Shown in pieces: positions 14,201 to 60,289 of a DNA stretch of 64,000 nt; position 1 is the first letter of the stretch; every line of letters starts with the position of its first letter. Below the pieces are notes generated by a model that was not told where the DNA came from, searched no databases, and saw only the letters and a list, made by a program, of their open reading frames with translations. The position numbers and the translations under genes are program-made. This stretch comes from Anaeramoeba flamelloides (taxonomy: Eukaryota; Metamonada; Anaeramoebidae), in the NCBI GenBank assembly GCA_027625915.1, contig JANTQA010000033.1:4216001-4280000 (forward strand). The letters are read 5' to 3'.

Positions 14201-16572
14201 TTTGGATTAAATTTTTTATTGAATTCGTAACTATTGCCAATTAATTTAAAAATTAATTCCAATCCCTTCATTGTTTGCAAAACTTGCCTCATTTTGTCTC
14301 CCTCTTCAATTTTTAATACATTGGTTAGAGTCTTTACAAATGTTAAGTAAATTGTTGAAAAGTGTTTTTGATTTTCAATACTTGCATTAGTTTTTTCCAC
14401 ATTGTAATATTCATTTAATAAATAATCCAAAACAGATCGATATCCCTTAGTCTTGATGATATCATTGTAAACATTCAATACCTCTTCAAAGATTCTTTCT
14501 TGCACTTGGCTTTCATTACCCTTTTCATTCAAAATTTCGAAAAGGGTATCGAAAATTTTGGCAATAAATTTGATTTTTTCGCTGGAATTAACATATTTCA
14601 GCTTTTGGAAGACTTCATTCAAATTGTTAATATTCTTTCTCCAATCGAAAAACGCGACCAATCTCTCGTGCTGAGTTAACGACGTGGAGCATAAATTCAC
14701 AGTGACAGTTAGGGCATTTTGGAAGCTTATCACCTTGGAATTCTTTTCCTTCGATTCCTTGCTGGTGGGCAAATAGAAGAGCGTATTTTTTCTTGCCAAT
14801 TTGGTATCCCATTTATAGAGATCAACTTTTTTTTCGCCTTGATCAATAATGGAATTGTCTGGGTTTGTTAACCGGATATAGCCTACAGAATAAATCTGCG
14901 ACGAGTTTGGTTGGGAGCTATAAATTTCAAAATACAGCTCTGCATTTTGATACTCCTGGGGGGTTAAGTTGATTTTCAATGTTTCGTTCCATTTCGGATC
15001 ACTCTTGGAACTGCACACATAGCTTGTGTACATATCCATGGTCTCGCCTGCCCCGCCATAGCTAATTGCCTTGGGGCGAAATGGCTCGTCTTTCGTGTTT
15101 TTGCCATCCTGTTGCTTCTGTTGGCCATTGCTTTCACTTCTATTTCTCACTGTGACCCTCAATTCCAAGTTTTTGAGTTTCTTTGCGTTGATCATGTTAC
15201 AGCCATTGAGTGTGATGTACAAATCGTTTCTTTGGTAATTGGGCAAAATGATTTCGGGGAACCTGGGTTTGATCGTTGGCGGGATGTCCTGCAATTTGTT
15301 TCCCTCATAATCGGGGTATGTTTTGATTACATGATCATAATCGCCCATATAGCACTTTATTTCGATGTTGACGCCGACACACGAGCTTTCCTTGAGCAGA
15401 TTGACATCGTTTTTGATGACCAATTCATGGAGCTTCCCAAACTTGGTTTCCTCGGGGTGGAAGAAGATCGGCAAGCTGAGATTTTGCTTTTCATTGGTGG
15501 ACGCTTGTATAAAGCTTTTGTCGATCTTGTGCACGGCGCACCCCAGCGGCCGTCGGTACACTGGCCAGTTTTCCTTCTTTTTGGTTTTTTTCTCTTCCTT
15601 GTTAAAGAGCCCCAATCTGAAGACGTGTGCGACTAAATAGAGATCAGAGTTGATCTCGTTTTCGTTCAGATCTTGGAAAATGGTTTTCAATTGCTTTTTT
15701 TGTTGATCGTTCGAGCCCATTTTGGATCCCATGCCTCCTCCGGCAACAATTTTCTCAATCGAAAAGCCTTCGCTGATCATCGTCTTGTCCTTTGCAGAGT
15801 ACAGCTGGAAAATGACGGTCGTGGGCTCAGTCATGCTCGTAATGATAAATTGGAAATCTAGCAGCATTTGCAGCTTGTTGCTTGTTGTGATCCTTCCCGT
15901 GACACGCGTCTGCGAAATCATGTCGCTGTGGTTGTTTTGCAAATAGAGCTCGTGGGCCTTGCAAACGCCCAGGTAGTCGATCATTGCCGGATCCCCGTTT
16001 TCTCGTCGCACCTGCTTCTTGATCGAAAAGATCGCATTGATTTGATCCAAATTGCTGACAATACGCTGCTTGATCGCAAATAGGGACTCCTTGGGCGTCT
16101 TCTTGGAGAGAAATTCCGTTCGGAACTTGATTAGTTGATCCATTATTTGGAAAATTGTTTGGATGTCCTTGCCCTTGACTCGCTCATATCTTGTCGAATA
16201 GATTCTCTCGCTCAAATGCTGAAGCGAGTTCTCGCACTCCAGAATCACGGGATCAAATTCGCGGACGGGATGGCAGTTAAGCGACAAAAACTCTTCCTTG
16301 GTGGGCCCCTTGCCCTCGGTGATCTTGACAAACTTTGTTGGGAAGATGCCCCTCCTTTCGGTAATTAATGTGCTTCCGTAGAGCCACTCCCCGCCATACT
16401 TTTCCTCAATAAGGATCGGCTCACCAATCGTCCGCAGTGTTAGGTGATCCTGGTGAACGCCAATGAAGGTGTGCTTTGTATAACAAAAGCCTTTGTTGAT
16501 TTCCCATCTCTTGTTTTCTTTTTCTTTTTCTTTTTCGATTTCGATTTCAATTTCAATTTCCTTTTGGTTCAT
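11251..16572 (-). CDS. DOCK-family guanine nucleotide exchange factor (DOCK180-like, with SH3, DHR-1 and DHR-2)
   Basis: Single-exon gene for a 1773-residue exchange factor that should load GTP onto a Rac/Cdc42-type Rho GTPase at the membrane. Domain order: an SH3 domain at about residues 27-86 (DHLTLRTIGEP, GGEWLYGS, RRGIFPTKFV); a helical N-terminal region; a C2-like DHR-1 domain at about 445-640 (RNDLYITLNGCNM, SDPKWNETLKINL, ELYFEIYSSQ), which in relatives binds phosphoinositides; an armadillo-like helical middle with a poly-Asn insert and a short coiled coil near 995-1050; and the catalytic DHR-2 from about 1330 to 1765. DHR-2 signatures are DLHVQNSNFTEAGLSLLKL, QVCTVLPSSMDV and NGVIDAAVNGGVQMY. 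The last keeps the Val-Asn of the nucleotide-sensor loop. The N-terminal SH3 places it with DOCK-A/B (ELMO-dependent, Rac-directed) rather than the zizimins; no ELMO gene is in the window. The ATG has A at -3. The N-terminal 'EIEIEIEKEKEKE' run is low complexity. GC content is far above the flanks, most strongly in the 5' third. Confidence 0.95.
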   Translation of the reverse strand: MNQKEIEIEIEIEKEKEKENKRWEINKGFCYTKHTFIGVHQDHLTLRTIGEPILIEEKYGGEWLYGSTLITERRGIFPTKFVKITEGKGPTKEEFLSLNCHPVREFDPVILECENSLQHLSERIYSTRYERVKGKDIQTIFQIMDQLIKFRTEFLSKKTPKESLFAIKQRIVSNLDQINAIFSIKKQVRRENGDPAMIDYLGVCKAHELYLQNNHSDMISQTRVTGRITTSNKLQMLLDFQFIITSMTEPTTVIFQLYSAKDKTMISEGFSIEKIVAGGGMGSKMGSNDQQKKQLKTIFQDLNENEINSDLYLVAHVFRLGLFNKEEKKTKKKENWPVYRRPLGCAVHKIDKSFIQASTNEKQNLSLPIFFHPEETKFGKLHELVIKNDVNLLKESSCVGVNIEIKCYMGDYDHVIKTYPDYEGNKLQDIPPTIKPRFPEIILPNYQRNDLYITLNGCNMINAKKLKNLELRVTVRNRSESNGQQKQQDGKNTKDEPFRPKAISYGGAGETMDMYTSYVCSSKSDPKWNETLKINLTPQEYQNAELYFEIYSSQPNSSQIYSVGYIRLTNPDNSIIDQGEKKVDLYKWDTKLARKNTLFYLPTSKESKEKNSKVISFQNALTVTVNLCSTSLTQHERLVAFFDWRKNINNLNEVFQKLKYVNSSEKIKFIAKIFDTLFEILNEKGNESQVQERIFEEVLNVYNDIIKTKGYRSVLDYLLNEYYNVEKTNASIENQKHFSTIYLTFVKTLTNVLKIEEGDKMRQVLQTMKGLELIFKLIGNSYEFNKKFNPNNNNNNNGNQNNNQGQRNIQSQKNLTSDENFKEKFSKLMNLFSDFMSLTEPTWVKSAQNVALKFFKTLFTDLLKIFDLDLTANLLAKMIKSVNVEGRDLMRRDKLIWIKSIATGQLVEQTESRKIIIKVIKEQINSNILIGETLNEICVSIINSLIIQTFQKSKKKNDLFQWTTQLLPFLHEIFRGLEYNDQLINALKEEQDKAIDEQHTNNKQELENLKKNTILKQEELKKKQNELESKNESLIQDIKSKFNQQIEKKIVIESSLISSFLSLFHMTNSEHISILLDSYSERIEDQTILLEKIFNLFLNILTKKSQLILKIDDDQFENSGLLESTDLPMARFLVIIETFKNISKLLTKKFLGENFQFNIWRLFVLSLLEFITLPELRTNKKFSSKADFIQDQYGDLREVAAIILDNCWYCLQDKIINFIPNEVEYFLKLLLLENKGLVNYGFEFYFTLFLEEFAKKGEISGIEQGTVAMVGSIIDTENDETFINYFFNRFEKKFAKWRSIEELGKEFLEQLKQLIQRSSKLKEFRGKQFEEEKSQVLIDIIDYLFKTQRYQMFARYCQLLCDLHVQNSNFTEAGLSLLKLVEILDWDSNSSTDNKNDNETNKDNQKKNENQKKFQTASKESLLKKAIDYLNKGKSWELAIEQIQYLKLYYADTYSYSKLNHYLSKESEFYKNIVTVDRFYATYFRVGYFGCGFEDEKYQGLKDQTFIYKGKELEQLSEFMDKLKIKFPKAAYDSKDPNEDQKNGEGQYIQVCTVLPSSMDVLHGKKIVYDRSIPEKILKHKMEGKVNVFVYSQPFKKSTIKSSNEFADLWIRNIYMITEDYFPTTCRRLKVKKSKTIEISPIQNGVNSIENKNEDLISIITKYQTETIQNTNPFSMALNGVIDAAVNGGVQMYVDAFFQLKYLVDNPKNEHLVVKMKQLLTNQLYILNVGLRLHNRLCPDNFRPFHDKMKIQLETMNKKLESSLKNIQPDEVF

Positions 16573-19500
16573 TTTCTTGAAATATTCTTTGGTTTGTTTG
16601 GTTGGTTTGTGGTTTGTGTTTTTGGTTGTTGGTTAGTTTGGTGTTTGTGAAAAGAGTTTTTAAAAAAAAAAGAATTGTTTTTTGTTTTTGCAAATTTGAA
16701 AAAAAAAATTAAAAAGAAATTTTAATTTTAAAAAAAGAAAAAAAGATAAAAAATAAAATTGCTTAAAGTACTTGGAAAATTTTTCTTCCTTTTACAATTT
16801 CAGTCAATGGAAAAATTTATTTTGGTATTTCTTCTTTTTTTAAATATTTAAAAATTTTCAACAAGACTTTTTCATTTATCGCCTTTTGTAGTAAGTTCCA
16901 TAATCGTGAAGAAACTAATATCTGAGGAAAAAACATTTAGTGTTGACAATTCAGACCTACACTGCTATTTGATTGATTTTTTCTCGAGATTTTTTTTTTT
17001 TTTTTACAGGCTTTTTTGGTTTTTTTTAATACAGAAACCTTTTGTTCCAAAAAAATGTCTCCTTGTAAATTGATACTATTGTGTTTGAAGATTAATTAGA
17101 AACACCTTTGGTTTTTACAAGTGAAATCCGGTCTTGTTTGTTTAATAGTACTGAATTCTACTTTTAAAATTATTGTTTTGAAAAGAAACAAGCTTGATCG
17201 TGGAAAAACTGTAAATCTTATAAAAAGGAAAAAAAATCGATATATTTGTTTTGGAAAAAAATCCCATTACAATGATGCTAATTTGAAGACAGACATTTTA
17301 AATTTTTTACAAAGCCCAGAAGTAAGAAGCAATTAGATTGCAAAATATTATTCATTTTGATTTATTGTTGATTTTTGAAATTTAAAAATAGGAACTAGTT
17401 TTACGAATTTTGAAATGAAATAAGCTTTATTTCCACTTTGTTTTTTTTTTGTTGTTTTTTAGTTTATTAATTTCATGTAAAACTCAAAGAAAATTACACT
17501 GACATTAACTTGTATTTCTGGTGTTGTTCTGAAAAAAAATTTGATCTTGGATTTACAAGAATTGAACGGAAATAAAAAAGAAAAGAAAAGAAAAGGAAAT
17601 CTTTTTCAAAGAACTGTTCCATACTTGACTAAATTTTTCTTCTCTCTACAATTCTCGAAAATTCCTTTTATTTCGAATTGTTTTGAAACACCAAAAAAGA
17701 ATGAATAATAAAAAGAACTTTATGAGTAAAAACGAACTTTAGAAACAAAACATTTACTTGAAACTGAAAGGAAAATTGAAACAACATTCTATCAAAAAGT
17801 TTTGGTTTCAAAATATTTAAGGTGACTGTAACATTGTTAGATTTAAGTGCGAAGGAAACAGGTTATTTTACCAAGTGGTTTATTATTAATAGGGAGTATA
17901 AGGTTCTCATCAAAATAAAGAAACAAATATTTGATTTTTGAGAAGATAATTAGAAAATAGCAGAAAAAAATTTTAGATAAAGTAACAGGATCATTTAATC
18001 TTATGTTGGTCAAATATTTAGAAGTCTTTTATAAAAATATTAAAATCATAAATTGTGTTTTTCAATTTCTTTTTAGAAATTAGAATTTTCGTGTATTTAT
18101 AGTCTATTTCAAAATTATTCCTACTAAAGGAACAAAGAAAAAAAATAAACTTCATTTCAAAAATTTGGAGTAAGCCCAAAATCAAAAATAGGCAAAATAA
18201 AAATCCAATTTATTATATTTTCCTAACGTAATATAAAACCATATTTAAATTACAAAGTATTAATGTTTTTATAAATAATCATTTCCGACCAAATAAAAGA
18301 AAAAAATTTAAATTTAAAAATAAAAAAATTGGTGTGTCTCAAATAATGAAACGAGTGGAACAAAAAATGTATTAGTAAATTTGTTGAAATTTCAACAAGA
18401 ATTGTTGATCGATCCAATAATAAGATACCATCTACCAATTGTATGTGTTTTTTTCAATTTAACAGAACTCAACACTATCCTTCTATCTACTATCGAAAAA
18501 AAATTCCAGATCTAACGAAACAGATTAGATAACTTGAAAAAAGGAAATTAAAACAAAACAGAAAAGAAAAAAAAATGAATAGTTTGTCAAATCAAAATTC
18601 TTTCCAAATTAAATGTAAAATGTGGTATTGCTATAATTTCAACTGTTTAAACTGTGTCAAAACTTTTGGAATTTAGTTTATTTTCCAAGTTTGTAAATAA
18701 TAAATTTAATGATAAGTATGTCTAGAGAAAAGGTTATGCTATTAGGAATAAGATATGACTTTTGGACTTGTCTTTTTTTGGGCTTTATTTTTTTTAATTG
18801 TTATTAAAAGTTGTGAAAATTTATTTTTTACAAAATCACAGTAGTTACAATCTTGATAATCATAACCCAGTTTAAGTAATGGCCGAATAAATCTACAGAG
18901 GGATTCATACAATCGTTTTAACTGTAGTTATTTTCCCACACCCAACAATTCAGCCTGTTTCACTTTATTTAAGATCAAATAAGATCATTTTCTCATTTCT
19001 TGTGAAGATTTTTTATCACTTGTACTTGATCGAAATATTTAAAAAAAATCAAAACCTGATAACTCAATAATTTTTAAAAAATGAAAAAAAAGAACATAAT
19101 TGATTGTGAATCGGAAATCTATATATAATTCCAATTTTTTTAATAATAAATGATTTTTGTTATTACCTTTCAATATTGATCATTTTCTCTTTTTTTTTTT
19201 TCAAATTAAAAAAAAAAATGATCTTAACCTTTCAATATTTTGATAATTACTTATTGGTATTTTTTAAAGGAAGCCTATTTCTTTTCAATACACTTTAATT
19301 AATTCTCATATATTTTTTAGATCTAGAATAAATTGATATTTTGATTATATATTAATAAGTATTTTAAGTCAGGTTTTACCAACTCGGATTATTTAAACTC
19401 AGCTATCTACATAAAGTTACTTTATTACTAGTACCCGTTTTATCTTTGGTTAATAATTCTTGAGTTGAAGTTTTTTTTATTATTATTTTTAATTTTATTA

Positions 19501-32463: not shown

Positions 32464-35400
32464 ATGTCCGACTTTGGAAACAAAAGGAGACAAATCGAAG
32501 AAAAGCCAACAAATTTCAAATCTTTATTTGCACGCTTTGAAGGAGGCAATTCACAAGAACCAAAAGAAAATTACAAACAAAAACAAAACAACCAAAACCG
32601 AAAGCCACTTAACCAACAACGATTTAATACCATCTCCGGAAACAACCAGCGAACAACCTCAAGAGAAAATGAAAACCCATTGGAAAACCCACAATCTCAT
32701 ATTAAAAGCAATCTTGTTAACAATAATTCCAAAAAAGAGACTTTGCATTCTCAAACAAAAAAAGGATGGGGCACAGTTACTAACAAAAGCACAGGGTGGG
32801 GAACTAACAAAAACGCAGGGTGGGGAACTAATAAACAGAACACAGGATGGGGAAACAAAAAAAACACAGGCTGGGGAACTAACAAACAAAGCACAGGGTG
32901 GGGAAATAAACAGAGCGCCCAGAGGGGAACTAATAAACAGAACACAGGGTGGGGTAATAAAACAAACACAGGATGGGGAAACAAAAAAAACACAGGATGG
33001 GGAACTAACAAACAAAGCACAGGATGGGGGAATAAAAAGAACAGCGAACAAGAAAACCAACAAAAAACAAACAAACCAAGAAGAAGACCTCCAGAAATAC
33101 CAACAATTCACAAACCTACAAATCAAAATGAAGCAAATTTTTCAAATAAAAAAGAAGACGAACCAGTTCAAGATCTAAAATATCTTGTAACTAAAGATCA
33201 CCAACGTATCAGTGAAAAAATACCAAACGTTTTGCCTCTAACTAAAGGAGAAATTGTTCAGTTGATAAGTAAAACTGAAAAGGATGTTTGGCTAAAAGGG
33301 AAAGACTCTCAAGGGAATGTTGGTCTATTTCATTTAAATTATGTTCAAGTACAACCAAATAATATTCAGGATCAAGGCCATTCCCAAAATGAAAATGAAA
33401 ACGAAAACCAGAATAACATTTCTCAGAAAAATGAAAATGGAAATAACATTACAGAAAAAATAATTTATATTGCAAAAAAAGATTACCAAAATGACTCTGA
33501 TCAAAATGTTTTAGTATTAAAGAAAGGAGACGAAATTGAGTTTGTGTCAAAAACTGAAAGTGAGGGTTGGATGAATGGCAAATTAAAAAATGGAAAAATT
33601 GGCTATTTTTATATCAATTTTGTCTATTTAAAAGGCGAAAAACCAGAATCGTCTTCCTCAGACAGCGACTCTGGCAGCGACTCTAATAGTGGAACTGATT
33701 CGGTTGATACCGATTCAGAAAATGAACAAGAATTGGAGTCTGAATCTAAAAATAAAAATAAAAATGTACATGAAAAGGGAAAGGATCATTCCCAAAAAAA
33801 TCTGTTGAATACGCCATTAATTAACAGCAGCAGCAGCAGCAACAACAATGATGATGATAGCAAAAAAATAATCTATCTTGTTACTCAAAATTATAAACCA
33901 CCGTCAAGTTTACCATCTGTTTTAGAATTAATAAAAGGGGAAGAAATTGAATTTATTAGTGACACTAAAAAGTCAGGGTGGTTAAAAGGGAAAAATAAAG
34001 AAGGGCAAATAGGGTTTATTTTCAGAAAAGGTGTGACTTTAAAAAAAAAAACCAAAAAACCAATCCCTGCCATTAGCAAACCACAAGAAAACAATAACAA
34101 AAGCAACAAAAAGATTATTTACGTTGCGATACGTAATTTTTTAAATCACCAAAATATTCCAGGGGCATTATTTTTTATGAAAGGAGATGAAATTGAGTTT
34201 TTATCAAAAACCTCAAAGCCTTTATGGTATGAAGGAAAAGATTCAAGTGGTAAAAGGGGGTATTTCCCAAAAGATTATGCCAGGTTGAAAACGGGAAACC
34301 CAATCGTTAAGGTGAATACTCCAATTAAAAAGCCAAATCAGATTCAAAGCAATAATTTCAACGCAAAGAGAGAAACAAAAGGCCAACCAAAAAATGAATT
34401 AAATTCCAATTTCGCAGAATACGATGAAAAAAAAACATATTGTAAAGCAACACAAACTTTTAAAAATCCTGAACAAAGAAAAAATGTATTAGTCTTTGAA
34501 AAGGGAATGATGATTGAATTAATAAAGAAAACAAATGAAACTTGGTGGAAAGGGACTTTAAATGGACAAGAAGGATATTTCCCAGTTGATCATATCCATG
34601 AAATTCCCGGTAAAAAGGACAAGGTGTATTATATCGCTCTAAAGGATTTTAAAAAAAGATTGAAAAAAAATATGTTGGATTTTAAAAAAGGTGATCGAAT
34701 TGAATTTTTAATGGAAACGACCAAAAAGGGGAAATTGTTAAAAGGTAAGCACCCAAATGGTAATATTGGGTTTTTTCGCCTCAAGCATGTGAAAATGGAA
34801 AAAATTAAATCAAAGAACAAGAAAAAGCCAAAGATTTCGAAATCAGATTCCAATGTTAAAAAAACTGTAAAAATAATTAAAGTAAAGGCACTACAAGATT
34901 TCCAAGAAAAAACAGCCTTTGGAAAGCCTTTACATTTTAAAGCTGGAGAAATAATTGAAATTGTTCAAAAAACACCCACTGGTTGGTGGAAAGGAAAAAT
35001 TAATGATAGAATTGGGTTTTTCCCCTCAAAGGTAGTTGTTGATCTTTCTCAAAATAAAACGACAACTGTTGAAAAAAATGGCAAACCTGAAAAAACAATT
35101 CCAAAAAAAATCAATTTACAAAAAATTTTAAGTACAGAAACAGAAGTGGCAAAAGATGCTAAAAATATTTTTTCATATACTAACCCACAAACACAAACAC
35201 AAACAAAAACACAATTAGCACAACAAAAAGAAGAAAATTCACCAATGATTCAAAAAACAAAAACAAAAGCTAATAATAACACCAAAACTGAAACTAAATC
35301 AGATCCAAAAAAAATCAATAAAACAAAAGATAAACAGAAAGGAAAGGAAAAGGGGAAAGAAACCAAAACAAAGGATAAACTAAAAGGAAAGGAGAAGGGG

Positions 35401-38400
35401 AAGGATAAAGATAAACATAAGGGGAAAGGAAAGGAAAAAGGGAAAGGAAAGAATAAGGATAAAGATAAACAGAAAGGCAAGGAAAAGGATAAACTAAAAG
35501 GAAAGGAGAAGGGAAAGAAAGAAAAAGATAAACAAAAAGGAAAAGTTAAGGGGAAGGGAAAGGTGGAAGAAATCAATACACTTGATGTCAATACTCTACC
35601 TTTACCAACAAATAATTTGGATAATGATTTGCCATTACCAGACATTTCCGATTTAGAATTAAACCCAGAACCAATTGATGGACTTGATTTGGAAACTCAA
35701 AAAAAGAGAAGGAAATTAAGTTTAAAAATGTTTAGACGATCAATGAAAAAAAATAAAACCACAAAATTCAATCCAAACGGGATAGACTTACCCGATAATC
35801 TGCCATTGCCAGAAGATTTCCCCTTACCTGAGAATTTGCCACTCCCAGAACCTTTAGCTAGAAATCAAGATCTACCAAAAGATCTTCCACCGCCAAATTT
35901 TGGCCCTGAAAAAATAATTGCACATTCTGATTTTAAAAATTTACATAATTTACCCAATGCCTTAACTTTTAAAAAAAATGAAGAAATTTTGTATATTACA
36001 AAATCGTCAGCAATAGGTTGGTTCAATGGAAAAAATTCAAAGGGGAAAGAAGGTATTTGCCCAAATACACATTTCCACTTCCCCTGGCTAGAGAAAAAGC
36101 CAATTATTACACCAAAACCAAAGCCACCACCAGAAATTAAAATCGAAGCAAAAGATAAGGAACAAGGCCAAACGGAAAGTGGGATAGATAAAGAAAAAGA
36201 AATGGAAAAAGAGAAAGAGAAAGAAGAGAAAAAGGAAATTATTTATATGATTGCTAAAGACACTTATACCAATGAAGAAAAAAGAGTAGGCGTGATGAGC
36301 TTTACAAAAGACGAAAAAATTATTTGGAAAAAAAAGAAGAATAAAGATTGGTTTTTGGGACAAAACGAAAAAGATGAAAAGGGCTATTACCCAACTAATT
36401 ATTTTATTGAAGAAAAATCGAGAAATACACAAAAAGATATTAAGAACCAAAAAAATGAAATAGAAACTGATTTAATAATTAAAACTACCTCAAAGGAAAA
36501 ATTGGCAAATGAATTAAATGCCAAAGGCGAGGATAAAGATAAGGATAAAAACAAGGACAAGGATCAAGATAATAACAAGGGCAAAGATAAGGATATTAAA
36601 AATGATAAAAAAAATAGAAAAAATAAGGATAATGAAATGGATAAGGAGAAAAACAAGGATAAGAATAATAAAAAGGACAAGGATAAGGGCAAAGATACGG
36701 ATATTAAAAAAGATAAAAAAAATAAGGATAAAGAAATGGACAAGGACAAAAAGAAAGATAAGGATCAAGATAAGAACAAGGACAAGGATAATAACAAGGG
36801 AAAAGATAAGGATATTAAAAAAGATAAAAAAAATAAAAAAAACAAGGACACTGGCACTGGCAAGGAGAAAGATAAAGATAAAGATAAGAATAAGGATAAT
36901 AAAAAGTACAAAGATAAGGATATTAAAAAAGATAAAAAAGATAGAAAAAATAAGGATAAGGAAATGGACAAGGACAAAAATAGAGATAAGGGTAAGGATA
37001 AGGTTAAAAACAAGGACAAAGACAAAGACAAAGACAAAGACAAAAAGAAGAAAAAAAAACCCACAAAATTAAATTTCAATACTACTTTTATTGAAGATGA
37101 AAGCGGATGGGCGGTAATAGACATTCGAGACAAAATCACACCCAAAAAAACAACTGCTTCTTTTATTGATTCTAAGAAAGAAAACAGGCAAGATATAAAA
37201 AAGAAAGATGATAAAAATTTCAAGCATGGCAAAGAAAAAGAAGAAAAGAAAAGAATCAACGCAAAGACAAAAACCTTTTCCAAATCTATAGACAAGAAAA
37301 AAGAAGTAGAAGATGATTGGGCAGAAATTGACGTTTCAGTTAATAATCCAAAAAAAACAAATGAAAAAACTACCACAGGGAATAAAAAACATCAACATAA
37401 TTTTAAAAAGGTGGGTGGCACTACTGGTACTACTAATACCTTTACTAATGCTAGTAACAATAAGAAAAAAAATGAAAAAATTAATATTAAAAAAATAAAA
37501 ACAGATAATAAGGATGATGAAGAAGATGCCTGGGCAGAAGTTAGTATTCCCAAAAATTCAACATCCCAAAAAATAAATTCTGATAAATTGTTCAAAAAAA
37601 CAAATTCTTCAAGACCAATTTCACATTCTAAAAAAAGTACTAAATCTAGAAATTCAAAACATCCCCACAATCATCATCACCATCACCGGCACCATAAAAA
37701 AAAAACCATTGATAAAAGATCAAAAAAACCCCAAAAAGAATATACAAAGCCTAAGAAAAATGAAGCATATATTAAAGAAGAGTGGGTAGGCATTCAAATG
37801 GGAATCGATGGAGATTTTGATGATTTGTGGGCTGAGTTCAAACCAAACAATACACAGAAACAAAATACTAGTCCAAAAAAATCATTTCAAACGAAAAAAG
37901 AAATTGAGGAAAATGAGAGAAGAAGAGAGAAATTAAAACAAAAAATTATTAACAATAAAAGAGAACAAGCAAAAAGGCGAAGAAGAGAACGAGAAAAACA
38001 AAAAGAAAGGGTAGAGGAAAAGGAGAAAGAGAAAGAGAAAGAGAAGGAGAAGGATAAAGAGAAGGTGAAGGGGAAGATGAAACAAAAACAAGAAAAAAAA
38101 ATAAAAGCAAAGGATGTAAAAGAGCAACAAATAGAAAAGGGAAAGGAAAACGAAAAGGAAAAGGAGAAAGGTGTTTCAAAAGAACATGATAATTCAAATA
38201 CAAGAAAAGTTAAAAGATCATCTTCAAAAAATAATCACCACCATCATCACAGTCGTAATCATCGCCACCACAAAGCCCAAGATTCTTCTAAACATCATAG
38301 CAAAAATAAAATTAAAAATACAACAACAAAAAAAAATCATATTTCAAAAGCAAAACCAAAATTCTTAAGAACAATCAAAGATTTTAATAATCCTAAAAAT

Positions 38401-38538
38401 CTTAAAAATATATTAATTTTTAAAAAAGGAGAGATTTTGAAAGTTGTGAAAAAGCCAAATGAAAGATGGTTTGTTGCACAACTCGGCGAAAAACGTGGTT
38501 ATGTACCTGTAGATTGTGTTGAAATATACGAAAAATAA
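32464..38538 (+). CDS. Giant SH3 scaffold: GW-repeat N-terminus plus ten SH3 domains
   Basis: Intronless gene for a 2024-residue protein; start chosen at the ATG with A at -3 (MSDFGNKRRQIEEKPTNFKS). Order: NFKSLFARFEGG segment; GW-repeat region (about 101-194); SH3 domains at about 237-299, 333-393, 467-528, 550-611, 657-716, 719-779, 801-862, 1149-1208, 1258-1320 and 1964-2024. Each shows the ALYDF-like first strand, an acidic or KGDEIE turn, a W-x-x-G-K block and a GYFP-like end. Canonical examples are WWKGTLNGQEGYFP and WWKGKINDRIGFFP; others have lost the second Trp or the Pro (SH3-3, -6, -8) and may not bind normal PxxP ligands. Linkers hold Ser/Asp-rich, Lys/Gly/Asp/Asn-rich (about 1356-1533), LPLP-rich (about 1040-1145) and His-rich tracts. 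Five Trp motifs of the type DDWAEID, DAWAEVS and DLWAEFK lie between SH3-9 and SH3-10. It probably gathers proline-rich actin or endocytic proteins; partners are unknown. AATAAA follows at 38645. Confidence 0.93.
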   Translation: MSDFGNKRRQIEEKPTNFKSLFARFEGGNSQEPKENYKQKQNNQNRKPLNQQRFNTISGNNQRTTSRENENPLENPQSHIKSNLVNNNSKKETLHSQTKKGWGTVTNKSTGWGTNKNAGWGTNKQNTGWGNKKNTGWGTNKQSTGWGNKQSAQRGTNKQNTGWGNKTNTGWGNKKNTGWGTNKQSTGWGNKKNSEQENQQKTNKPRRRPPEIPTIHKPTNQNEANFSNKKEDEPVQDLKYLVTKDHQRISEKIPNVLPLTKGEIVQLISKTEKDVWLKGKDSQGNVGLFHLNYVQVQPNNIQDQGHSQNENENENQNNISQKNENGNNITEKIIYIAKKDYQNDSDQNVLVLKKGDEIEFVSKTESEGWMNGKLKNGKIGYFYINFVYLKGEKPESSSSDSDSGSDSNSGTDSVDTDSENEQELESESKNKNKNVHEKGKDHSQKNLLNTPLINSSSSSNNNDDDSKKIIYLVTQNYKPPSSLPSVLELIKGEEIEFISDTKKSGWLKGKNKEGQIGFIFRKGVTLKKKTKKPIPAISKPQENNNKSNKKIIYVAIRNFLNHQNIPGALFFMKGDEIEFLSKTSKPLWYEGKDSSGKRGYFPKDYARLKTGNPIVKVNTPIKKPNQIQSNNFNAKRETKGQPKNELNSNFAEYDEKKTYCKATQTFKNPEQRKNVLVFEKGMMIELIKKTNETWWKGTLNGQEGYFPVDHIHEIPGKKDKVYYIALKDFKKRLKKNMLDFKKGDRIEFLMETTKKGKLLKGKHPNGNIGFFRLKHVKMEKIKSKNKKKPKISKSDSNVKKTVKIIKVKALQDFQEKTAFGKPLHFKAGEIIEIVQKTPTGWWKGKINDRIGFFPSKVVVDLSQNKTTTVEKNGKPEKTIPKKINLQKILSTETEVAKDAKNIFSYTNPQTQTQTKTQLAQQKEENSPMIQKTKTKANNNTKTETKSDPKKINKTKDKQKGKEKGKETKTKDKLKGKEKGKDKDKHKGKGKEKGKGKNKDKDKQKGKEKDKLKGKEKGKKEKDKQKGKVKGKGKVEEINTLDVNTLPLPTNNLDNDLPLPDISDLELNPEPIDGLDLETQKKRRKLSLKMFRRSMKKNKTTKFNPNGIDLPDNLPLPEDFPLPENLPLPEPLARNQDLPKDLPPPNFGPEKIIAHSDFKNLHNLPNALTFKKNEEILYITKSSAIGWFNGKNSKGKEGICPNTHFHFPWLEKKPIITPKPKPPPEIKIEAKDKEQGQTESGIDKEKEMEKEKEKEEKKEIIYMIAKDTYTNEEKRVGVMSFTKDEKIIWKKKKNKDWFLGQNEKDEKGYYPTNYFIEEKSRNTQKDIKNQKNEIETDLIIKTTSKEKLANELNAKGEDKDKDKNKDKDQDNNKGKDKDIKNDKKNRKNKDNEMDKEKNKDKNNKKDKDKGKDTDIKKDKKNKDKEMDKDKKKDKDQDKNKDKDNNKGKDKDIKKDKKNKKNKDTGTGKEKDKDKDKNKDNKKYKDKDIKKDKKDRKNKDKEMDKDKNRDKGKDKVKNKDKDKDKDKDKKKKKKPTKLNFNTTFIEDESGWAVIDIRDKITPKKTTASFIDSKKENRQDIKKKDDKNFKHGKEKEEKKRINAKTKTFSKSIDKKKEVEDDWAEIDVSVNNPKKTNEKTTTGNKKHQHNFKKVGGTTGTTNTFTNASNNKKKNEKINIKKIKTDNKDDEEDAWAEVSIPKNSTSQKINSDKLFKKTNSSRPISHSKKSTKSRNSKHPHNHHHHHRHHKKKTIDKRSKKPQKEYTKPKKNEAYIKEEWVGIQMGIDGDFDDLWAEFKPNNTQKQNTSPKKSFQTKKEIEENERRREKLKQKIINNKREQAKRRRREREKQKERVEEKEKEKEKEKEKDKEKVKGKMKQKQEKKIKAKDVKEQQIEKGKENEKEKEKGVSKEHDNSNTRKVKRSSSKNNHHHHHSRNHRHHKAQDSSKHHSKNKIKNTTTKKNHISKAKPKFLRTIKDFNNPKNLKNILIFKKGEILKVVKKPNERWFVAQLGEKRGYVPVDCVEIYEK
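32764..33045 (+). repeat. GWG tandem repeat inside the SH3 scaffold gene
   Basis: Eleven tandem units of 8-9 codons. Ten begin Gly-Trp-Gly (GWGTNKQNT, GWGNKKNT and variants) and one is degenerate (QRGTNKQNT). At DNA level the unit is about 24-27 bp and all six frames stay mostly open here, giving spurious overlapping frames. High unit similarity implies recent expansion. Confidence 0.9.
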
Positions 38539-48873: not shown

Positions 48874-51800
48874 ATGGGTGCTGCGAACACTAAAAAAAGG
48901 AAATATCGAAAAGAAAAGAAAAAAGCAAGGAAATTAGATCAACAATTACAAATTTCAAAAGATCAAAAAGCAAAAGAGGCAAATATCTTATTATTAGGTA
49001 ACATCTTTCAATCACAAATACCAATTTAATTCCCTTCTTATTTGTATCAATTGTTTCCTACTTGAATACTTTGCTAAAAAAATTTTTAAAAGGTACTGGT
49101 GACTCGGGTAAATCGACGATGGTCAAACAACTCCAAATCTTATATAACAATGGCTTTAGTCAAAAAGAAATTCAGGACTACAAGCGAGTCATACAAGACA
49201 CAATCCGTTTCTCGATGCAAAACCTTCTTCGGTCTTGTGAAGAGCTAAATTATACTCTTAAAAGCGAGACAGAAAGTTTAGAGGGTATCTTTAATAAAGG
49301 GTTCAACGATCACGAGGTATGTTTTACAAAAAAATTTGGAAAAACAATGGCAACTTTATGGACCGATCCTGCTCTAAAGAAGACATGGTTAAAAAGAGAA
49401 AAATTCCAAATTGCTGAAAACTCTGATTAGTAAGAACTTGGTCCTGTTTTTTTTTTTTTTTTGTTGGTATTCCCCCTTTACCGTTTTTTTTTATGTTTGG
49501 AAATAAAATTTATTATTTTGCAAATATTTTTTTAAAGTGAATTACGACAATTCGAAAATTCAGAAAAAATTACAAACAACTCAATACCATTGAAAATTTG
49601 ATATTTTTTACAAATCGAAAAAAAATTTGGTCAAATACTCTCAACTTTTTTATTTTTTTTTGAAAAGCATAAACAGGATTTTTGCAAAACCCCTCAAGTA
49701 AAACATCAAATCACTTTCAATGAATTTACTCCAGACTCAAAGAGTAGTTTACCACTCAAAAGTTTTCTTGTGAAATTTCGATTCTTTTACTTGACAAAAA
49801 ATCCAAACACGATTAAAAATAAATTTAGTCGATTAATGAAAAGAAATTTCCAATTACAAAAAAATATTTTGCAAGATCTAATTTCAAAAAAAATTCAACT
49901 GATTTCCAAGACAAAATATTCAAATAATCAAAAAAGAGTTTAAGGGAGTAAGTACATTTTACCAATTTTGAGTGTCAAGGTTTATCTAACTGAATGTTTC
50001 TAATCATTTATTTTACCAAACACACAAATGTTTTAATAAATAATGAAGTGAAATATATCCAAATATAAGAGATTTACAAACCAATTAAAAAAATGGAAAT
50101 CAAAAAATTGAAAAAATGATCAAGAAAAAAAAAATAAAAATCATTTATTTAAACTATATGTAACATTTGACACAATTACTTATTCTTAATTTGGGTTTTA
50201 TTTTGAATTCTTTATCGAAATAAATTTTGTTTGTAAAATTTTTAAGAAAACAAATTACTTTTTTTTTCGAAAGAATTTCCAAAATGAATTTAAAAATGTT
50301 ATTTTCATTTAATTCATCTAATTCTAGATTGAGTGAAAAAAAATAGGATATTTTTTTGAATTATTCAGCAGAAATCAAGTGTTTCTAGAATGTATTATTT
50401 TGACTTAATAATTATTTATTTTCCATTCAAATCCGAGAACAAAAAATAATTCTGAATTCTGATTGAAATTTTTACTTGAATTTTTCTTTTATTTTGAGTT
50501 GAATCTTTTGTAACTGTTTTTTTGATTCCGAGTATTCAAGCCCCTTTACTTTCCTTTTTGAAATAGTGTTCTTTTGTTTTGGCTTTGTTTGATAAAAATA
50601 TTGGAAAAAAAAATTTTAAAAGCAAATTTGTAAAAAATGTATTTTTTAAATAAGAATAAATAGTAATGAGACGAGAAATTCAAGGTTATAAATTGTTTGG
50701 ATTCATATAATTAAGTCGATAAAGAAAACAAATCTCCGAAAATAGTCTTTTATAACTTTTTTTTTCTTCATTTTTGAATTCAACAAATGTATTTGGAAAA
50801 GGAGATCTTTGGTATTTGGTCTTCTAAAAGAAAATTATTTGTTTAAAATGTACACATTTTTTGGTCTATTTTTTAGGTTTATTCTATGATTAATTCCAAT
50901 CTTTCATGGAAAAATACATTTCCAGATTCAAAACGGATAATTTAATAAAACAAAAAATTTAATCTATCTAAAAATGTTCCAAAAATTAAAAAATTAAATA
51001 TTCAACTCTGTTTTACTTTAGGTTCGCTTTCTTTTGACAAATAGAGCAGTGAATGATGTTTTGGTTTTCAAAATTTCAATATCTGTCTGACACTCAAAAA
51101 ATATTTTTTTAGGTAAGGTTCTCACAATTAAAAAATTTTCGAAATCGAAAAATGTTCCTACCCCCTTAAAAGAATTCCCAATTTCAAAAAATTCAATTTT
51201 TAAAATATAAATCATTTCTTATTTTATATTTCAAAATGGTTAAATTTCTCCAATCAAATTGTTTTCTTTCAGCACATAATCAATTTAATCTAATTTGTGG
51301 TTATATTATAACCCGCAATATTTAATAAAATAAGGATTTTGTAATATTCTTTAGATCAAAAATAACTCATTCGAGAAGAGAAAAAAATAAAAAATCTTTG
51401 AGATCTCAAAAAGAGTCAAAAAGTGACCGTTCAAAACTAACATAGTTTTTTTCAAAATTATTTACACCACTCTAATTGGAAATTGAGTGTCGTTCTTTGG
51501 CGATTTTTTCATAAAATGGTTAAGTTTTTCATAATTGATTTTTTGAGATCGATCTTTCTTCAAATGTTTATAAGTTTTTGATTCGTATTAGTCACTCAGA
51601 AAAATTACAAAATTTTTTTTTTTCCATTTTAAATAATTTTTTTCCACCGAAATTACTCTACCCATAATTATTTTTGATCAATTGAAAATATTAGGAAAAA
51701 TCACAAAATATATTTTATTTTGAGAAAAATATTCAAATTATTGAATGTCCATTAACCAATATAATATGGGGTATCGTTTAAATATTCTAAATCTTTCAAT

Positions 51801-54112
51801 TTAAACCCATTGGTAAATGAAAAAATCAAAAAAATCATAATTGTTCAGAATTAATATAGAAGACGACTGAAAATTAAAATCTGACTTTAATATCAAAACT
51901 TTTTAGAATTGGGCGTTTTTTTATCAATTTAAAATATATGAATTAATGCTCATTTGAGAAAGGTGTTTGTTTATTTTGAATTTACATTAATTTAAGAAAA
52001 AATGATATCAAATTAAATAAAAATAAAAATAAAATAATTTTAATTGATTGTGGAAAGTAAATAAAAATTTTATTTGTTAATTCTTAAATGATAAAAAATG
52101 TAAACAATTTTTTTTTTTTGATAAATGCTCTTGAAATACTTTAAATAGGTTTTTTAAAATTCAAAATTGAGACGAGAAACAAAAAGTTTACCAACCTTCA
52201 TCCAGGCTAATTTTGGTTGAAAAAAAAAAAAAAAAGAAAAATTAAAAAATATATATAATGAACTATTATTTTAAAAGCAATCATTTGAAAACCATTTTCA
52301 AATAATATGAGAACCTCATTATGTTATTTAAAAATCTTTTGAAATTTTTTTATTTACACTTAAAATTTATAAATTTAATAACCAAGAAAAAACAAACAAA
52401 CAATTAAAGGTATTAAAAATAATTAAAGTAACATTACTATTGATAATTTAATTTAATTTTTTATTGAACGAAATTACCACAAAAATATTTCAATATAATA
52501 AACTCCAAGAATTTTAAAATAATTAAAATAGTTCGAAAAACAACACTCCTGGAATTACATTCGGTTTGGAAATAATTTTGGTTTTAACAAAATATCAAAA
52601 TCATTTTTTCATTTTTGTTTGTTATTTTCATTTTCATTTTTTTTTTTTCAATTACGTATAAAAGTTTAGATTATATCCACAATTTTTTTTCAAATATTGA
52701 TATTATGTTAAAGTTGAGTTAATCAAAATAGAAGAACTCAAATAAATTTAGGTGATCATGTCAACCTTTTGATCGATCAATATTCCTAATAGTATTTTTA
52801 GAAATTTATTAATGTATATTTTGTTTTGCTCTCTCCAAAATTTTTAACATACCGATAATTTATTGGTATTGATAATATTTCATTTTTTGTTTGGTGAGGG
52901 GATTGTAATTTATAAAAAAGTGTTAACATTTCAATTAAAAAATGATTCTAATTTGGTATTTCTTCTAGAATTTTATTAAATTAGATTTTTTTTTCAAAAA
53001 TTGAATTTTTATGTGTTAAAAAATTTGAATTAAAATATACTTTAGACGAACAAAATGACATATTATTAATACAATTTGAAAAAAAAAAAAATTAATTGGT
53101 TTCCATCTTTTTTTAATCACCATATTCCTCTTCCTCTTTTTCTTGTTATTGATGTTCTCCATAAATATCCTTTCATGAATAGTACTTATTTTATCTTTCA
53201 TTTCCATTAAATTAATAATATAATACTCAAATTTAAAATTTGAATTTTTTTTTAAAATTTCTTAACAAAATTAATAGTTTTTGGGATAATATCAATCGGA
53301 TATACAGTGAAAAATTCCAACCAAGTAATAAAGATATACTCTATTGCAGAATACCAACGGTTGGAGTTAAAGAAATATTATTTAATATAGGAGACAAACA
53401 ATGGAGGTAACTTTTATTGAAAAAAAAAAATCAAAATATTTATTTTGTAAAATAAACTTTTATTAGTAACTTCATCATTTTGATTTAAAAATTTATATTA
53501 ATTAAACAATTTAGAATCGTGGATGTTGGTGGGCAAAGGAACGAAAGAAGAAAATGGATACATCAATTTGAGAATGTTGATTTATTATTATTTATTGTTG
53601 GGGTAAGTGAATATGCCAAAAATTTGTATGAAGATAAGAACATGAATAGAATGCATGAAAGTATTAAAGTATGGAAAGATACCCTGAAGACAAACCATTT
53701 TAAAAAGATACCAACCACAATTATATTCAATAAAATTGATATTTTTAAAGAAACTTTATCAAGAGTATCTTTAAAACATTGCTTCCCAGAATATACTGGC
53801 AATGATAATTTTGAAGAAGCTTCACGATACATTATGGATAATTATTTAACAAAAAGAATTTTAAAAAAAAGAGATATCAAATATCATTTTACCTGTGGAA
53901 CAAATACCGAACAGGTAAGTTTTTTTTTTTTTGTATTTAATATTCAATCAAAACATTATTTTAATATTAATTATAATTTTTTTACCTATTTTTTATTATT
54001 TTGCTTTTTATTTCTAATTTACTTATATTCTATGTCTATAAAGGTCCAGGGCGTAGTGGAAAAACTAATTAATACAATTATTTATAATTCATTGGAAGGG
54101 TTTTTGCTTTAA
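48874..54112 (+). CDS. Heterotrimeric G-protein alpha subunit
   Basis: Five exons: 48874-48997, 49093-49429, 53278-53406, 53515-53914 and 54044-54112; 1059 coding nt, 352 residues, the normal G-alpha length. Introns are 95, 3848, 108 and 129 nt, all GT..AG. Each join restores family sequence: LLG/TGDSGKSTMVKQ, AENSDY/FWDNI, DKQWR/IVDVGGQ and TCGTNTEQ/VQGVV. All GTPase motifs are present: P-loop GTGDSGKST (Asp where most have Glu), helical domain with LWTDPALKKTW, switch I CRIPTVGV with the Arg and Thr, switch II DVGGQRNERRKW with catalytic Gln, FNKID and TCGT. It should bind GTP at the plasma membrane, be activated by a 7TM receptor and pair with beta-gamma. MGAANTKK fits an N-myristoylation signal, but there is no Cys3 for palmitoylation. 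The C-terminus (LEGFLL) lacks the Cys at -4 that is the pertussis-toxin site. The N-terminal helix is strongly basic (KKRKYRKEKKKARK). Confidence 0.96.
49939..51170. mobile_element. TTAA-type inverted-repeat element inside the G-alpha intron (1232 bp)
   Basis: Left end TTTAAGGGAGTAAGTACATT and right end, reverse-complemented, TTTAAGGGGGTAGGAACATT. A second shared motif, TTTTGAGTGTCA, follows inside each end at different distances. The termini resemble family D (TTTAAGGGGGT) but the interior differs. No transposase frame is seen. Confidence 0.65.
52540..53050. repeat. Dispersed repeat family R3, copy 2 (in G-alpha intron 2)
   Basis: Closest to copy 3 at 61195-61710, sharing 'aatagaagaactcaaataaa', 'ccttttgatcgatcaat', 'ttgttttgctctctccaaaat', 'taaaaaagtgttaacatttc' and 'aatgattctaatttggtatt'. 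No coding potential. Confidence 0.8.
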
Positions 54113-56653: not shown

Positions 56654-59107
56654 CAGAGAAAGGCAAACGGTGTATAAAAAATGATCTAAAAGTGTTTTTT
56701 TTCCTAATGACTCACTTTTATTTTAGTGAGTTGCTTGAATTTGTATGTTCTTTTATTATTTAAACTTTAATACTCTTATTCAGAAAAGAGTAATAGAGTT
56801 TTATTTTAAAATCCTAAAATAACTCCTCACTAAAAATACACCATTGTTAGAGAGGAGTAAAGAAAGCAATTCTGAAGTTTTTTTCCGTGTCGAGTCATCA
56901 CGAAAAAATCCAAAACACGGAGTACGTGTTCATTTTAGTATTTTAAGGCGTCTACGTCATCGTAAAGTGGTTGAAAAAGAATTTCAACTGATTTAAATTC
57001 ATTTTTTTAAATCATATTTCACTTTAAGTGTTTAAGAGCGTGTCACGAAAAAGAATTCAAATTTCTAAACCAAACACATCCATTTCAGTTCGTCAGAAAT
57101 TGAAAGTGAGGAGGAAGAATCGAAGAAAGAAGAAGAAACAAAGAGATACTGTTTTAAATAATAAAAACACAATCATTGTTTCAAATTCTGTTGAAAAGAT
57201 TGAAACGAAAACAAGAGTAAAATTATTTTGATAATTAATCCCAAAGAACTCAACTAATATTTATTTTTTTTTTCTTTTTCTTTTCTTTTCTTTTTTTCAA
57301 TAGGTGAACCTAAGTAACTTGGTTGAGATTCTAAAAGAACCCGATATGAATTGTTTTACTTTTCTTGAGTCGAATAAAGAAAAGATAAAAAAGGGGGGCT
57401 TTTATCAGATACTATGTCGGAAATGCGGTGCCACTATTTGTGGTTCGCGATACAGTATGAAAAGACATTTATTGACTAGTAAACACAGAAGAGGTTTTGG
57501 ACCAAATGGTCAGACAGCATCAGAGCTAATCATCCAGGATAGTGTAGACAGAGTCACACAAACCTTCCTGCAAGCTTCTGTGCCAATTGATAAATTTCAT
57601 CGGTTGGTCAATCGAGATTCGATTGTTGCGTTTCGATCACTTGGTTCAATTCCTTCAATAAGAACTGTGCGAAGGTCAATAGTACGAGTTCTTGAAGAGA
57701 AAAAGAGTAACATGAAAAGAGTACTTGTTGGACAGAGGTTTTGTCTAATGATGGACGAAACGACTGACATCACTTCACGCAGTTTGTGTGCTGTTGTGGT
57801 AACCAACTTGGATTTCCAATTGTGTCTCAAAGTCAAAGAAATGGATAGATGCGATGCCTCTTCATTGCAAAAACTCCTGGAAGAAACATTACTTGAATAC
57901 GAGATTGATTGGCAACAAATTACAAATTTTGTTACTGATGGTGCAAGAGCATGTGTTTCATTAGGAAGACGATTAAACGAACAATATGCAATACAACACA
58001 CTTTATGTGCTGCACACTTACTGCATCTCATTTCACAAAAATTAATGGAGTCTTTTCCAAACATCAATGGATTATGTAAATTGGTTCGTGTGTTTTTTAA
58101 GAGGGGAATACAAGCAGGCCGTAAGAAGCGATGGAGAAGTCAAAACATAACTGACATATCTCTTCCTTCAAAAAACACGCTGGGGAACTTGGTTAAAATG
58201 TGTTTCAGATGTGTTCATGAGACGCAAAAAACTTACTTACTTTTATAACCAAGGAGGAAACATCAGAAACTGCGAATCAAATGATAAAGTGTTTGACGAA
58301 TGAAGGAAGCATACAAGACCTCCGTTTCATTGAATATTTTTCAAGACTATTTACACCTTTGATAGATGGAATTCAAGAACGACAACTCCGAAAAGATACT
58401 TTAAATAGATGGCGAAATATCGAAACTTGGTTATTTAAAATGAGTGGGAAAGATTATGCAAAAATAATCAATTTATCGGTTAATAGCGGAACGATGGGGA
58501 AAATTATGGATTTTCTCAATAAAATAAGAAGATACAAGCCACGATGGGAAGATGCCAATAGAATCATTTATACGCATTTTTACTTATGCCCTGAACACAT
58601 TAAACCACTTATTGAAGACGAAAATAAACTATGTGATAAGATGCGTAAATACCTACGTGGAGATTTGATTGGTCAGTTCATTGACTTTCAAAATTTTTTG
58701 ATGAAAAAAAGATGAATCTTGTCATTCGCCTCACCTATACTGGACTGGAAAAAAACAAGTTTTTGGAGATTTGTCCAAACATTTTTTGAGCTTGTTAGTT
58801 ATGGAGCCTACTTCATGTGAAGTTGAAAGAGTCTTTTCACATGTCACTTATATTATGAATCCACGAAGAAATCGATTAAATACCGAAAATCTTGAAGCAG
58901 AAGTGATTTTCAGTTACAATACAATTAATTAAAATTTCTTTTTCATTTTTTTTTCATAATCTTTACTCATTTCTTTCTTAAAATAAATTCATCAAGAAAA
59001 ATAGAAAATTTCAATAAAGCACCTTTTCTGCACTTTTTTTTCGTTTTTCTTTTTTTTTAGTAACTTTCCGTGTTAATTTTTCATTTTACACCTTTTGCCT
59101 GTCTCTG
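56654..59107 (+). mobile_element. hAT-superfamily DNA transposon with exact 8-bp target duplication (2454 bp)
   Basis: Left terminal repeat CAGAGAAAGGCAAACGGTGT (56654-56673) and right, reverse-complemented, CAGAGACAGGCAAAAGGTGT: 18 of 20 positions match. ATAAAGAT is present directly outside both ends (56646-56653 and 59108-59115). An 8-bp duplication, a CAGAG start and a BED/RNase-H transposase inside are diagnostic of hAT. The perfect duplication argues for a fairly recent insertion. The element is less AT-rich than its surroundings. Confidence 0.97.
57346..58932 (+). pseudogene. hAT transposase, three frameshifts
   Basis: Order of hAT parts: BED-type zinc finger (CRKCGATICGSRYSMKRHL..H); RNase-H-like core with first Asp in MMDETTDITS and second in NFVTDGARACV; the CAAHLLHL motif; then a dimerisation tail (PTSCEVERVFSHV, NPRRNRLNTENLEAE). 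The frame changes three times, each explicable by one extra base in a homopolymer: A-run 58170-58175 (before RWGTWLKC), T-run 58241-58244, and A-run 58704-58710. After three +1 steps the original frame is regained and runs to TAA at 58930. Frame 1 stops at 58248. The start is uncertain: ATG 57346 is just before the finger. A basic open frame at 57028-57219 could be joined by a GTAAAA...TTCAATAG intron ending at 57303, but it has no ATG. As written it cannot make a full transposase. Confidence 0.93.
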
Positions 59108-60000: not shown

Positions 60001-60289
60001 GTTTATTTCCTCAAAAGTTGGACAAATTTATTTTAAAATATCTTTCTTAAACCACAATCCTCATAATAATATTTAGATATACAAAATCACTCAAAAACTT
60101 TTCTTGGTTCTTTATCATAATTCAATTTTTATGTTAGTATGTTATTACATAAATAAAATATATTAAATTTTCTGATCTCTATTTTATTTGATATTATATA
60201 AGGATGAAAATTACCATTTATTATTTTCTTTAAGATTGGAAACAATCTTTTCATAACATGTTAATTTCGACTAATAATATTCAAATAGA

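What the first reader, a model, noticed from the sequence alone, without database searches (positions are those of the whole stretch)
32464..38538. Ten-SH3 scaffold with a GW-repeat head
A single intronless exon encodes ten SH3 domains, unusually many for one chain, joined to an eleven-unit GWG tandem repeat, LPLP tracts and long Lys/Asp/Asn linkers. GW/WG repeats in disordered regions are the known Argonaute-hook architecture in animals and plants, and also occur in other binding proteins. I know of no described protein that combines them with an SH3 array. The GW part could recruit an unrelated partner, so the Argonaute link is only a hypothesis.
Basis: partly seen in the sequence, partly recalled or inferred. 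Interest (0 to 1): 0.75.

Follow-up and report, generated by a model that had tools for sequence, protein, structure and literature searches.

The report
Amoeba ten-SH3 scaffold, tryptophan-motif head
A gene of the anaerobic amoeba Anaeramoeba flamelloides encodes a large scaffold protein with ten SH3 binding domains and a tenfold repeated tryptophan motif; the repeat looks like an amplified short motif found once in each of four sister proteins, and it is more likely part of a cell-skeleton scaffold than a docking site for gene-silencing proteins.

Summary
Window 32464-38538 (+) is one open frame of 2024 aa with ten SH3 domains, the sixth degenerate. The GW block has eleven units; ten carry GWG. 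The organism is Anaeramoeba flamelloides; another assembly encodes the same protein (97% identical, nine GWG).

The Argonaute reading is weakened. The genome has six Piwi-family loci; the three compared with solved structures are PIWI-clade. Of four residues whose joint mutation abolished GW182 binding in an AGO-clade protein, 1, 0, 0 and 0 of 6 loci keep them. Four paralogs in the genome (7-11 SH3 domains) lack a GW block but carry exactly one SGWGR each, so the array looks like an amplified family motif.

A second motif was not noted: five acidic W-[AV]-x-[IVF] sites in the C-terminal linker (at most 1 in 5000 shuffles; pattern chosen after seeing the sites). They resemble Arp2/3-binding acidic motifs, and the genome holds ARPC2 and WH1 genes.

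Best explanation: a multivalent SH3 scaffold, probably of the actin cortex, with two kinds of Trp docking motif. Partners are inferred, not shown.

The parts
32464..38538 (+). single-exon gene, 2024-aa SH3-array scaffold (P0001); ATG to stop
32761..33042 (+). GW block, residues 100-193: ten GWG units plus one degenerate; W-W spacing 8-10, once 17
32917..32946 (+). seventh, degenerate unit (AQRG...), which also differs between the two assemblies
33082..33102 (+). class I SH3 ligand RRPPEIP (residues 207-213); RRKPPPIP in two paralogs
33178..33348 (+). SH3-1
33460..33624 (+). SH3-2
33868..34035 (+). SH3-3 (just over the Pfam cut-off)
34114..34281 (+). SH3-4
34435..34599 (+). SH3-5
34624..34794 (+). 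SH3-6, degenerate: no groove Trp, below the Pfam cut-off, still modelled as a barrel
34876..35037 (+). SH3-7
35596..35895 (+). LPLP/FPLP/LPPP tract (residues 1045-1144)
35914..36078 (+). SH3-8
36241..36405 (+). SH3-9 (at the Pfam cut-off)
37090..37134 (+). acidic Trp motif 1, IEDESGWAVIDIRDK
37300..37344 (+). acidic Trp motif 2, KEVEDDWAEIDVSVN
37513..37557 (+). acidic Trp motif 3, DDEEDAWAEVSIPKN
37765..37809 (+). acidic Trp motif 4, AYIKEEWVGIQMGID
37810..37854 (+). acidic Trp motif 5, GDFDDLWAEFKPNNT
38365..38523 (+). SH3-10, C-terminal

Best explanation
The gene encodes one of at least five paralogous SH3-array scaffolds of Anaeramoeba flamelloides. Shown here: ten SH3 domains on basic, low-complexity linkers; a head whose GW block repeats tenfold an SGWG motif that is single in the four paralogs; five W-[AV]-x-[IVF] sites in acidic surroundings in the C-terminal linker; one class I SH3 ligand within the chain. 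Inferred: the protein works as a multivalent adapter at the actin cortex. Its SH3 domains with an intact groove gather proline-rich partners such as WASP. Its acidic Trp motifs dock on Arp2/3, as the acidic motifs of cortactin, yeast Abp1 and WASP do. The amplified SGWG motif raises the avidity for one partner of unknown identity, which the single-copy paralogs bind with low valency.
For: SH3 array and no other Pfam domain up to E 0.1. SGWG in 5 of 5 family heads, 10 GWG here and 1 in each of the other four; 0 GWG in 5739 aa of 17 other SH3 frames that a filter kept from 30 loci. W-[AV]-x-[IVF] 5 seen, at most 1 in 5000 shuffles; local net charge -3 to -4 against a linker mean of +2.2, with 7.5% of 17-mers at -3 or below. 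Paralog heads carry Trp with acidic runs (DEDEDDDEWLDD in P0004), and one WH1 frame of this genome ends SEDEEPESDSEWSD. ARPC2 at seven paired places, 12 WH1 matches. Cortactin's DDWETDPDFV binds Arp3 through its Trp (PMC10613254, passages); yeast Abp1 joins an SH3 domain to two acidic motifs (PMC6057921, passages).
Against: No localisation, binding or expression data. No F-actin-binding domain found, unlike Abp1. The pattern W-[AV]-x-[IVF] was chosen after seeing the five sites. Acidic residues before these Trp are only modestly enriched over the acidic linker: 56 of 2000 shuffles reached 5. The residues after the Trp are hydrophobic, unlike the WASP tail, and fit a WxxF adaptor-ear motif about as well. 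By eye only 6 of 10 SH3 domains keep both groove Trp and Pro, and none keeps the first Tyr of ALYDY (alignment), so many may not bind ordinary PxxP ligands. L056, a further frame with five SH3 domains of this subtype, has no GWG in the 917 aa seen; its head was not fetched.
Confidence: 0.43

Rival explanations
1. Argonaute hook: the GW block docks PIWI-clade Argonautes and ties small-RNA complexes to an SH3 scaffold.
For: Ten GWG in a low-complexity head, alternate Trp 16-18 residues apart, 25-26 across the degenerate unit (positions); TNRC6 sites need two Trp ten or more residues apart (PMC9262622, passages). Six Piwi loci exist, and all six keep P700, three C691, of AGO2 pocket 3, five F653 and six Y698. 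GW proteins Wag1p and CnjBp act with the Tetrahymena Argonaute Twi1p (PMC5666084, passages), and GTSF1 binds PIWI proteins through three Trp (PMC9385479, passages).
Against: P590, F659, K660, E695 kept in 1, 0, 0, 0 of 6 loci. PMC12477606 (section 35 read) finds the GW interface variable in the PIWI clade. Four paralogs have a single GWG.
Confidence: 0.07
2. Endocytic adaptor-ear docking: the W-[AV]-x-[IVF] sites are WxxF-type motifs for clathrin-adaptor ear domains, and the scaffold serves endocytosis rather than Arp2/3.
For: GDFDDLWAEF fits WxxF exactly; multi-SH3 proteins such as intersectin, CIN85 and CD2AP work in endocytosis (motif and roles recalled).
Against: Four of five sites have I or V in place of F. 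No adaptor ear was searched for.
Confidence: 0.15
3. The GW block is a near-neutral low-complexity expansion of one SGWG motif by replication slippage, with no added function.
For: Length differs between assemblies (10 against 9 GWG), with one 8-residue indel; the block is a tandem repeat with periods up to 126 bases at 88% matches, and the gene holds other such repeats. The only other coding GWG array found by the pattern is among FG-like repeats in a B-box protein.
Against: GWG kept in 10 of 11 units although Gly codons differ; the three substitutions between assemblies inside the block fall in the one unit without GWG.
Confidence: 0.25

Closest known systems
P0003/P0004, 'Las seventeen-binding protein' of A. 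flamelloides, and unnamed paralogs L052, L053
   Same: SH3 array of the same subtype (11, 11, 9, 7 domains), SGWG motif in the head, similar low-complexity linkers
   Different: One GWG instead of ten; Trp with acidic runs in the head, where P0001 has none; RRxPPxIP in L052 and L053 but not in P0003/P0004; P0003 and P0004 are 36% identical to the finding
CIN85/CD2AP, intersectin, Tks5 (multi-SH3 adaptors)
   Same: Several SH3 domains without a catalytic domain (recalled); Foldseek matches include CIN85 and CD2AP SH3 domains
   Different: 3-5 SH3 domains and, in some, other domains (recalled); no GW block
Cortactin and yeast Abp1
   Same: SH3 plus acidic Trp motifs; EDDWAEIDV against DDWETDPDFV
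   Different: No F-actin-binding domain found here; ten SH3 domains
GW182/TNRC6 and Tetrahymena Wag1p/CnjBp
   Same: Reiterated GW in a low-complexity region
   Different: SH3 array; the genome's Piwi proteins lack the AGO residues of pockets 1 and 2

Membership tests
Argonaute-hook GW protein | Reiterated GW/WG in a low-complexity region | tested here: met
Argonaute-hook GW protein | Pairs of Trp at least ten residues apart | tested here: met
   W positions; rule from PMC9262622 (passages)
Argonaute-hook GW protein | Partner Argonaute with AGO-type Trp-binding pockets in the genome | tested here: not met
   six Piwi loci; P590, F659, K660, E695 in 1, 0, 0, 0 of 6; pocket-3 C691 in 3 and P700 in 6 of 6
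Argonaute-hook GW protein | GW array conserved among homologues | tested here: not met
   kept in P0002 (9 GWG); single GWG in 4 of 4 paralogs
Argonaute-hook GW protein | Physical binding to Argonaute | not testable with these tools
   needs a pull-down
Multi-SH3 adaptor/scaffold | Two or more SH3 domains, no catalytic domain | tested here: met
Multi-SH3 adaptor/scaffold | SH3 domains with an intact PxxP groove | tested here: inconclusive
   by eye 6 of 10 keep Trp and Pro, none keeps the first ALYDY Tyr (alignment)
Type II nucleation-promoting factor (cortactin/Abp1 kind) | Acidic Trp motif | tested here: inconclusive
   five sites share a pattern, acidity only modestly enriched
Type II nucleation-promoting factor (cortactin/Abp1 kind) | F-actin-binding domain | tested here: not met
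   Pfam finds SH3 models only
Type II nucleation-promoting factor (cortactin/Abp1 kind) | Arp2/3 complex in the organism | tested here: met
   ARPC2 at seven paired places; other subunits not searched

The most novel reading that the evidence does not exclude
The SGWG head is a docking platform for PIWI-clade Argonautes that lack the animal AGO pockets 1 and 2, so that an SH3 scaffold holds small-RNA complexes at the cell cortex or another membrane, with repeat number setting the valency. It would be a hook read by an undescribed pocket.
Probability: 0.06. Interest if true: 0.8.

Novelty: new variant of a known kind. Interest (0 to 1): 0.4.

Why it matters
It shows a protist genome with a family of 7-11-SH3 scaffolds in which one copy has a short Trp motif amplified tenfold, with copy number differing between assemblies. 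That gives natural pairs (1 against 10 copies in paralogs, 9 against 10 in assemblies) for testing how linear-motif valency evolves. It also cautions that GW repeats alone do not make an Argonaute hook.

Tried and rejected
Argonaute hook as first choice: set aside on pockets and paralogs. GW block as FG-nucleoporin-like repeat: the only other coding GWG array that the pattern finds lies in a B-box protein with FG-like repeats; P0001 has no FG repeats in its sequence, so not adopted; the pattern asks for three GWG at set spacing and misses other arrays. Homologue searches returned only A. flamelloides proteins. Searches scored only the candidates sharing most words, all 278; none of the three returned L052 or L053, which exist, so they are insensitive and absence elsewhere, for instance in A. 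ignava, is not shown. Codon counts in the block (53 synonymous, 0 non-synonymous single-base differences in the GWG cores) were made on the 10 units that keep GWG; the degenerate unit was left out, so the zero is true by construction and is not used. '15 of 15 Trp outside SH3 domains lie in a motif' (boundaries) becomes 15 of 16 with the HMM boundaries, because W1208 lies three residues past SH3-8; not used as evidence. The control kept 17 frames of 30 loci by a rough SH3 pattern and missed the two six-SH3 frames on C70 and C13. The structure model has pTM 0.22 and four sequences; only single barrels are used. Gene neighbours (DOCK GEF, G-alpha) give no functional link. Papers: searches are search listings only. 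In 94 no paper holds both Anaeramoeba and SH3. In 93 (any two of SH3 domain, GW repeat, Argonaute-binding) 12 of 30 papers were listed; 2 of these 12 (PMC12208459, PMC5732267) hold both SH3 domain and GW repeat, and neither was opened; none of the 12 holds SH3 domain with Argonaute-binding; 18 were not seen. Passages of PMC11437800 and PMC7015924 were seen and not used. On recheck the best explanation went from 0.45 to 0.43, for the W1208 correction and the L056 frame without GWG.
Full report
What is there. Window 32464-38538 (+) is one open frame of 2024 aa. The closest database protein, P0002, is a 'grb2-related adapter protein' of Anaeramoeba flamelloides, 97% identical and 2102 aa long. 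The window lies in a 254-Mb, 76-contig genome at G000:C34:4216001-4280000. P0003 and P0004, both named A. flamelloides, lie on contigs whose lengths equal C29 and C75 of this genome. A DNA search of the genome with window 34400-35050 finds one full-length copy, the window's own, so P0002 most likely belongs to another assembly. Strains BUSSELTON2 and SCHOONER1 are described in PMC11550330 (passages); that these are the two assemblies is inference.

SH3 domains. Pfam SH3_1 matches at E 2.8e-57 with 9 stretches, and only SH3 models match up to E 0.1. Cut out singly, 8 of 10 segments pass a Pfam SH3 cut-off (segment 3 by 0.7 bits), segment 9 equals it and segment 6 falls short. An HMM built from the ten domains and widened with their paralogs finds 10 in P0001, 10 in P0002, 11 in P0003, 11 in P0004, 9 in L052, 6 in the first 1850 aa of L053 and 5 in the part of L056 held. 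The end of L053 adds a seventh, read by eye. AlphaFold2 on residues 195-870 gives seven five-stranded barrels, mostly at 70-90 pLDDT, joined by segments below 50; pTM 0.22. The best Foldseek match is an integrative two-protein model with TM-scores of 0.12 and 0.15; most of the rest are SH3 proteins, with some large transcription and polymerase complexes at TM-scores near 0.1. So ten SH3 domains is typical of this family, not exceptional within it. By eye on the alignment, 9 of 10 keep the first groove Trp, 6 of 10 keep both Trp and Pro, and none keeps the first Tyr of ALYDY.

The GW block. Eleven units, ten with GWG; W-W spacing 10, 8, 9, 8, 9, 17, 8, 8, 9. Shuffled linkers reach at most 2 GWG in 2000 trials. 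P0002 has nine GWG: one unit is missing, and the three substitutions inside the block fall in the unit that lacks GWG in both. A genome-wide pattern for three spaced GWG gives 14 forward and 0 reverse matches: six are this block, one is a B-box protein with FG-like repeats (L021), and the other seven are T- and G-rich repeats. The pattern read backwards, as control, gives 8 forward and 1 reverse, so the match count itself is not far above chance and only the two coding arrays matter. Arrays with other spacing would be missed.

Paralogs. Besides P0001 the genome holds P0003 (C29), P0004 (C75), L052 (C70) and L053 (C64). In their heads GWG occurs exactly once each: SSGWGR, SSGWGR, NSGWGR, NSGWGR; 17 other SH3 frames of the genome, kept by a rough filter from 30 loci, have none in 5739 aa. 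L056, a related five-SH3 frame, has none in the 917 aa seen, but its head was not fetched. The simplest history is one ancestral SGWG, amplified in the lineage of the window's gene; no rooted tree was built. P0001, L052 and L053 share a class I ligand RRxPPxIP in the head; P0003 and P0004 lack it. All four paralogs have Trp followed by an acidic run in the head; P0001 has none there.

A second Trp motif. The 641-residue linker 1321-1961 holds five Trp, and all five read W-[AV]-x-[IVF]; 5000 shuffles reach at most 1, but the pattern was chosen after seeing the sites. Each lies in a 17-residue stretch of net charge -3 or -4, in a linker whose 17-mers average +2.2 and of which 7.5% are at -3 or below. 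The looser test, two or more acidic residues in the four before the Trp, is weaker: 56 of 2000 shuffles reach 5.

Argonaute test. Six loci match Piwi (PF02171), E 2.0e-84 to 8.5e-49. Three of six were compared with solved structures; each matches PIWI proteins first and AGO-clade proteins far lower: L004 1.8e-142 against 2.7e-43, L006 2.9e-59 against 7.4e-20, L001 1.5e-102 against 1.4e-36. The other three were only aligned. PMC5147811 (passages) names four ALG-1 pocket residues whose joint mutation abolished detectable GW182 binding; mapping them to human AGO2 P590, F659, K660, E695 is mine. They are kept in 1, 0, 0 and 0 of 6 loci. Other positions are kept more often: L650 in 5, F653 in 5, C691 in 3, Y698 in 6 and P700 in 6 of 6; PMC9262622 (passages) assigns C691 and P700 to pocket 3. 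PMC12477606 (section 35 read) finds these pockets highly variable in the PIWI clade. Against this stand the GW proteins that act with Tetrahymena Twi1p (PMC5666084, passages) and Trp-dependent binding of GTSF1 to PIWI proteins (PMC9385479, passages). So a hook is unlikely but open.

Mechanism. Cortactin binds Arp3 through DDWETDPDFV, a Trp among acidic residues (PMC10613254, passages); yeast Abp1 pairs an SH3 domain with two acidic motifs (PMC6057921, passages); multivalent SH3 linkers gather WASP to a threshold in yeast (PMC5559269, passages). The genome has ARPC2 halves at seven paired places, one pair 4 kb apart with a stop inside, plus two weak matches, and 12 WH1 matches. Of two WH1 loci looked at, one frame has a proline-rich stretch and an acidic tail ending in EWSD, the other shows neither in the stretch held. 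On this basis a multivalent scaffold of the actin cortex is the best-supported mechanism (0.43). Adaptor-ear docking, a neutral expansion and an Argonaute hook remain.

Noticed in passing
L001-L006 (own genome C13, C70, C9, C37, C70, C24): Six Piwi-family loci, PIWI-like rather than AGO-like in the three compared with solved structures; only L004 keeps D, D and H at the AGO2 597/669/807 positions, four have Q at 807 and L006 keeps none of the three.
   Followed up: partly
L021 (own genome C24:13108800-13118799), 3928-5916: B-box protein with SGWGSSNN units among FG-like repeats and a long FTFGSNN tail.
   Followed up: partly
own genome: Large SH3 repertoire (150 matches, 150 of 408 candidates scored), ARPC2 at seven paired places and 12 WH1 matches: a duplicated actin machinery.
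   Followed up: no
own genome C70:2474065-2476113 and C13:14869910-14871877: Two other single frames (1441 and 1428 aa) with at least six SH3 matches each.
   Followed up: no
11251-16632, - strand: DOCK-family exchange factor in a single frame of 1793 aa.
   Followed up: no
49002-54112, + strand: Heterotrimeric G-protein alpha subunit in at least two exons.
   Followed up: no
57304-58248, + strand: DUF659 match, as in hAT-type transposases (recalled).
   Followed up: no
60278-61153 + and 63453-63998 -: Ras-association domain frame, and an NFACT-R domain frame cut by the window's end.
   Followed up: no
own genome C23:91934-92213 and C30:4042201-4042261: T- and G-rich repeat tracts that match the GWG pattern by composition; telomere-like by eye.
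   Followed up: no
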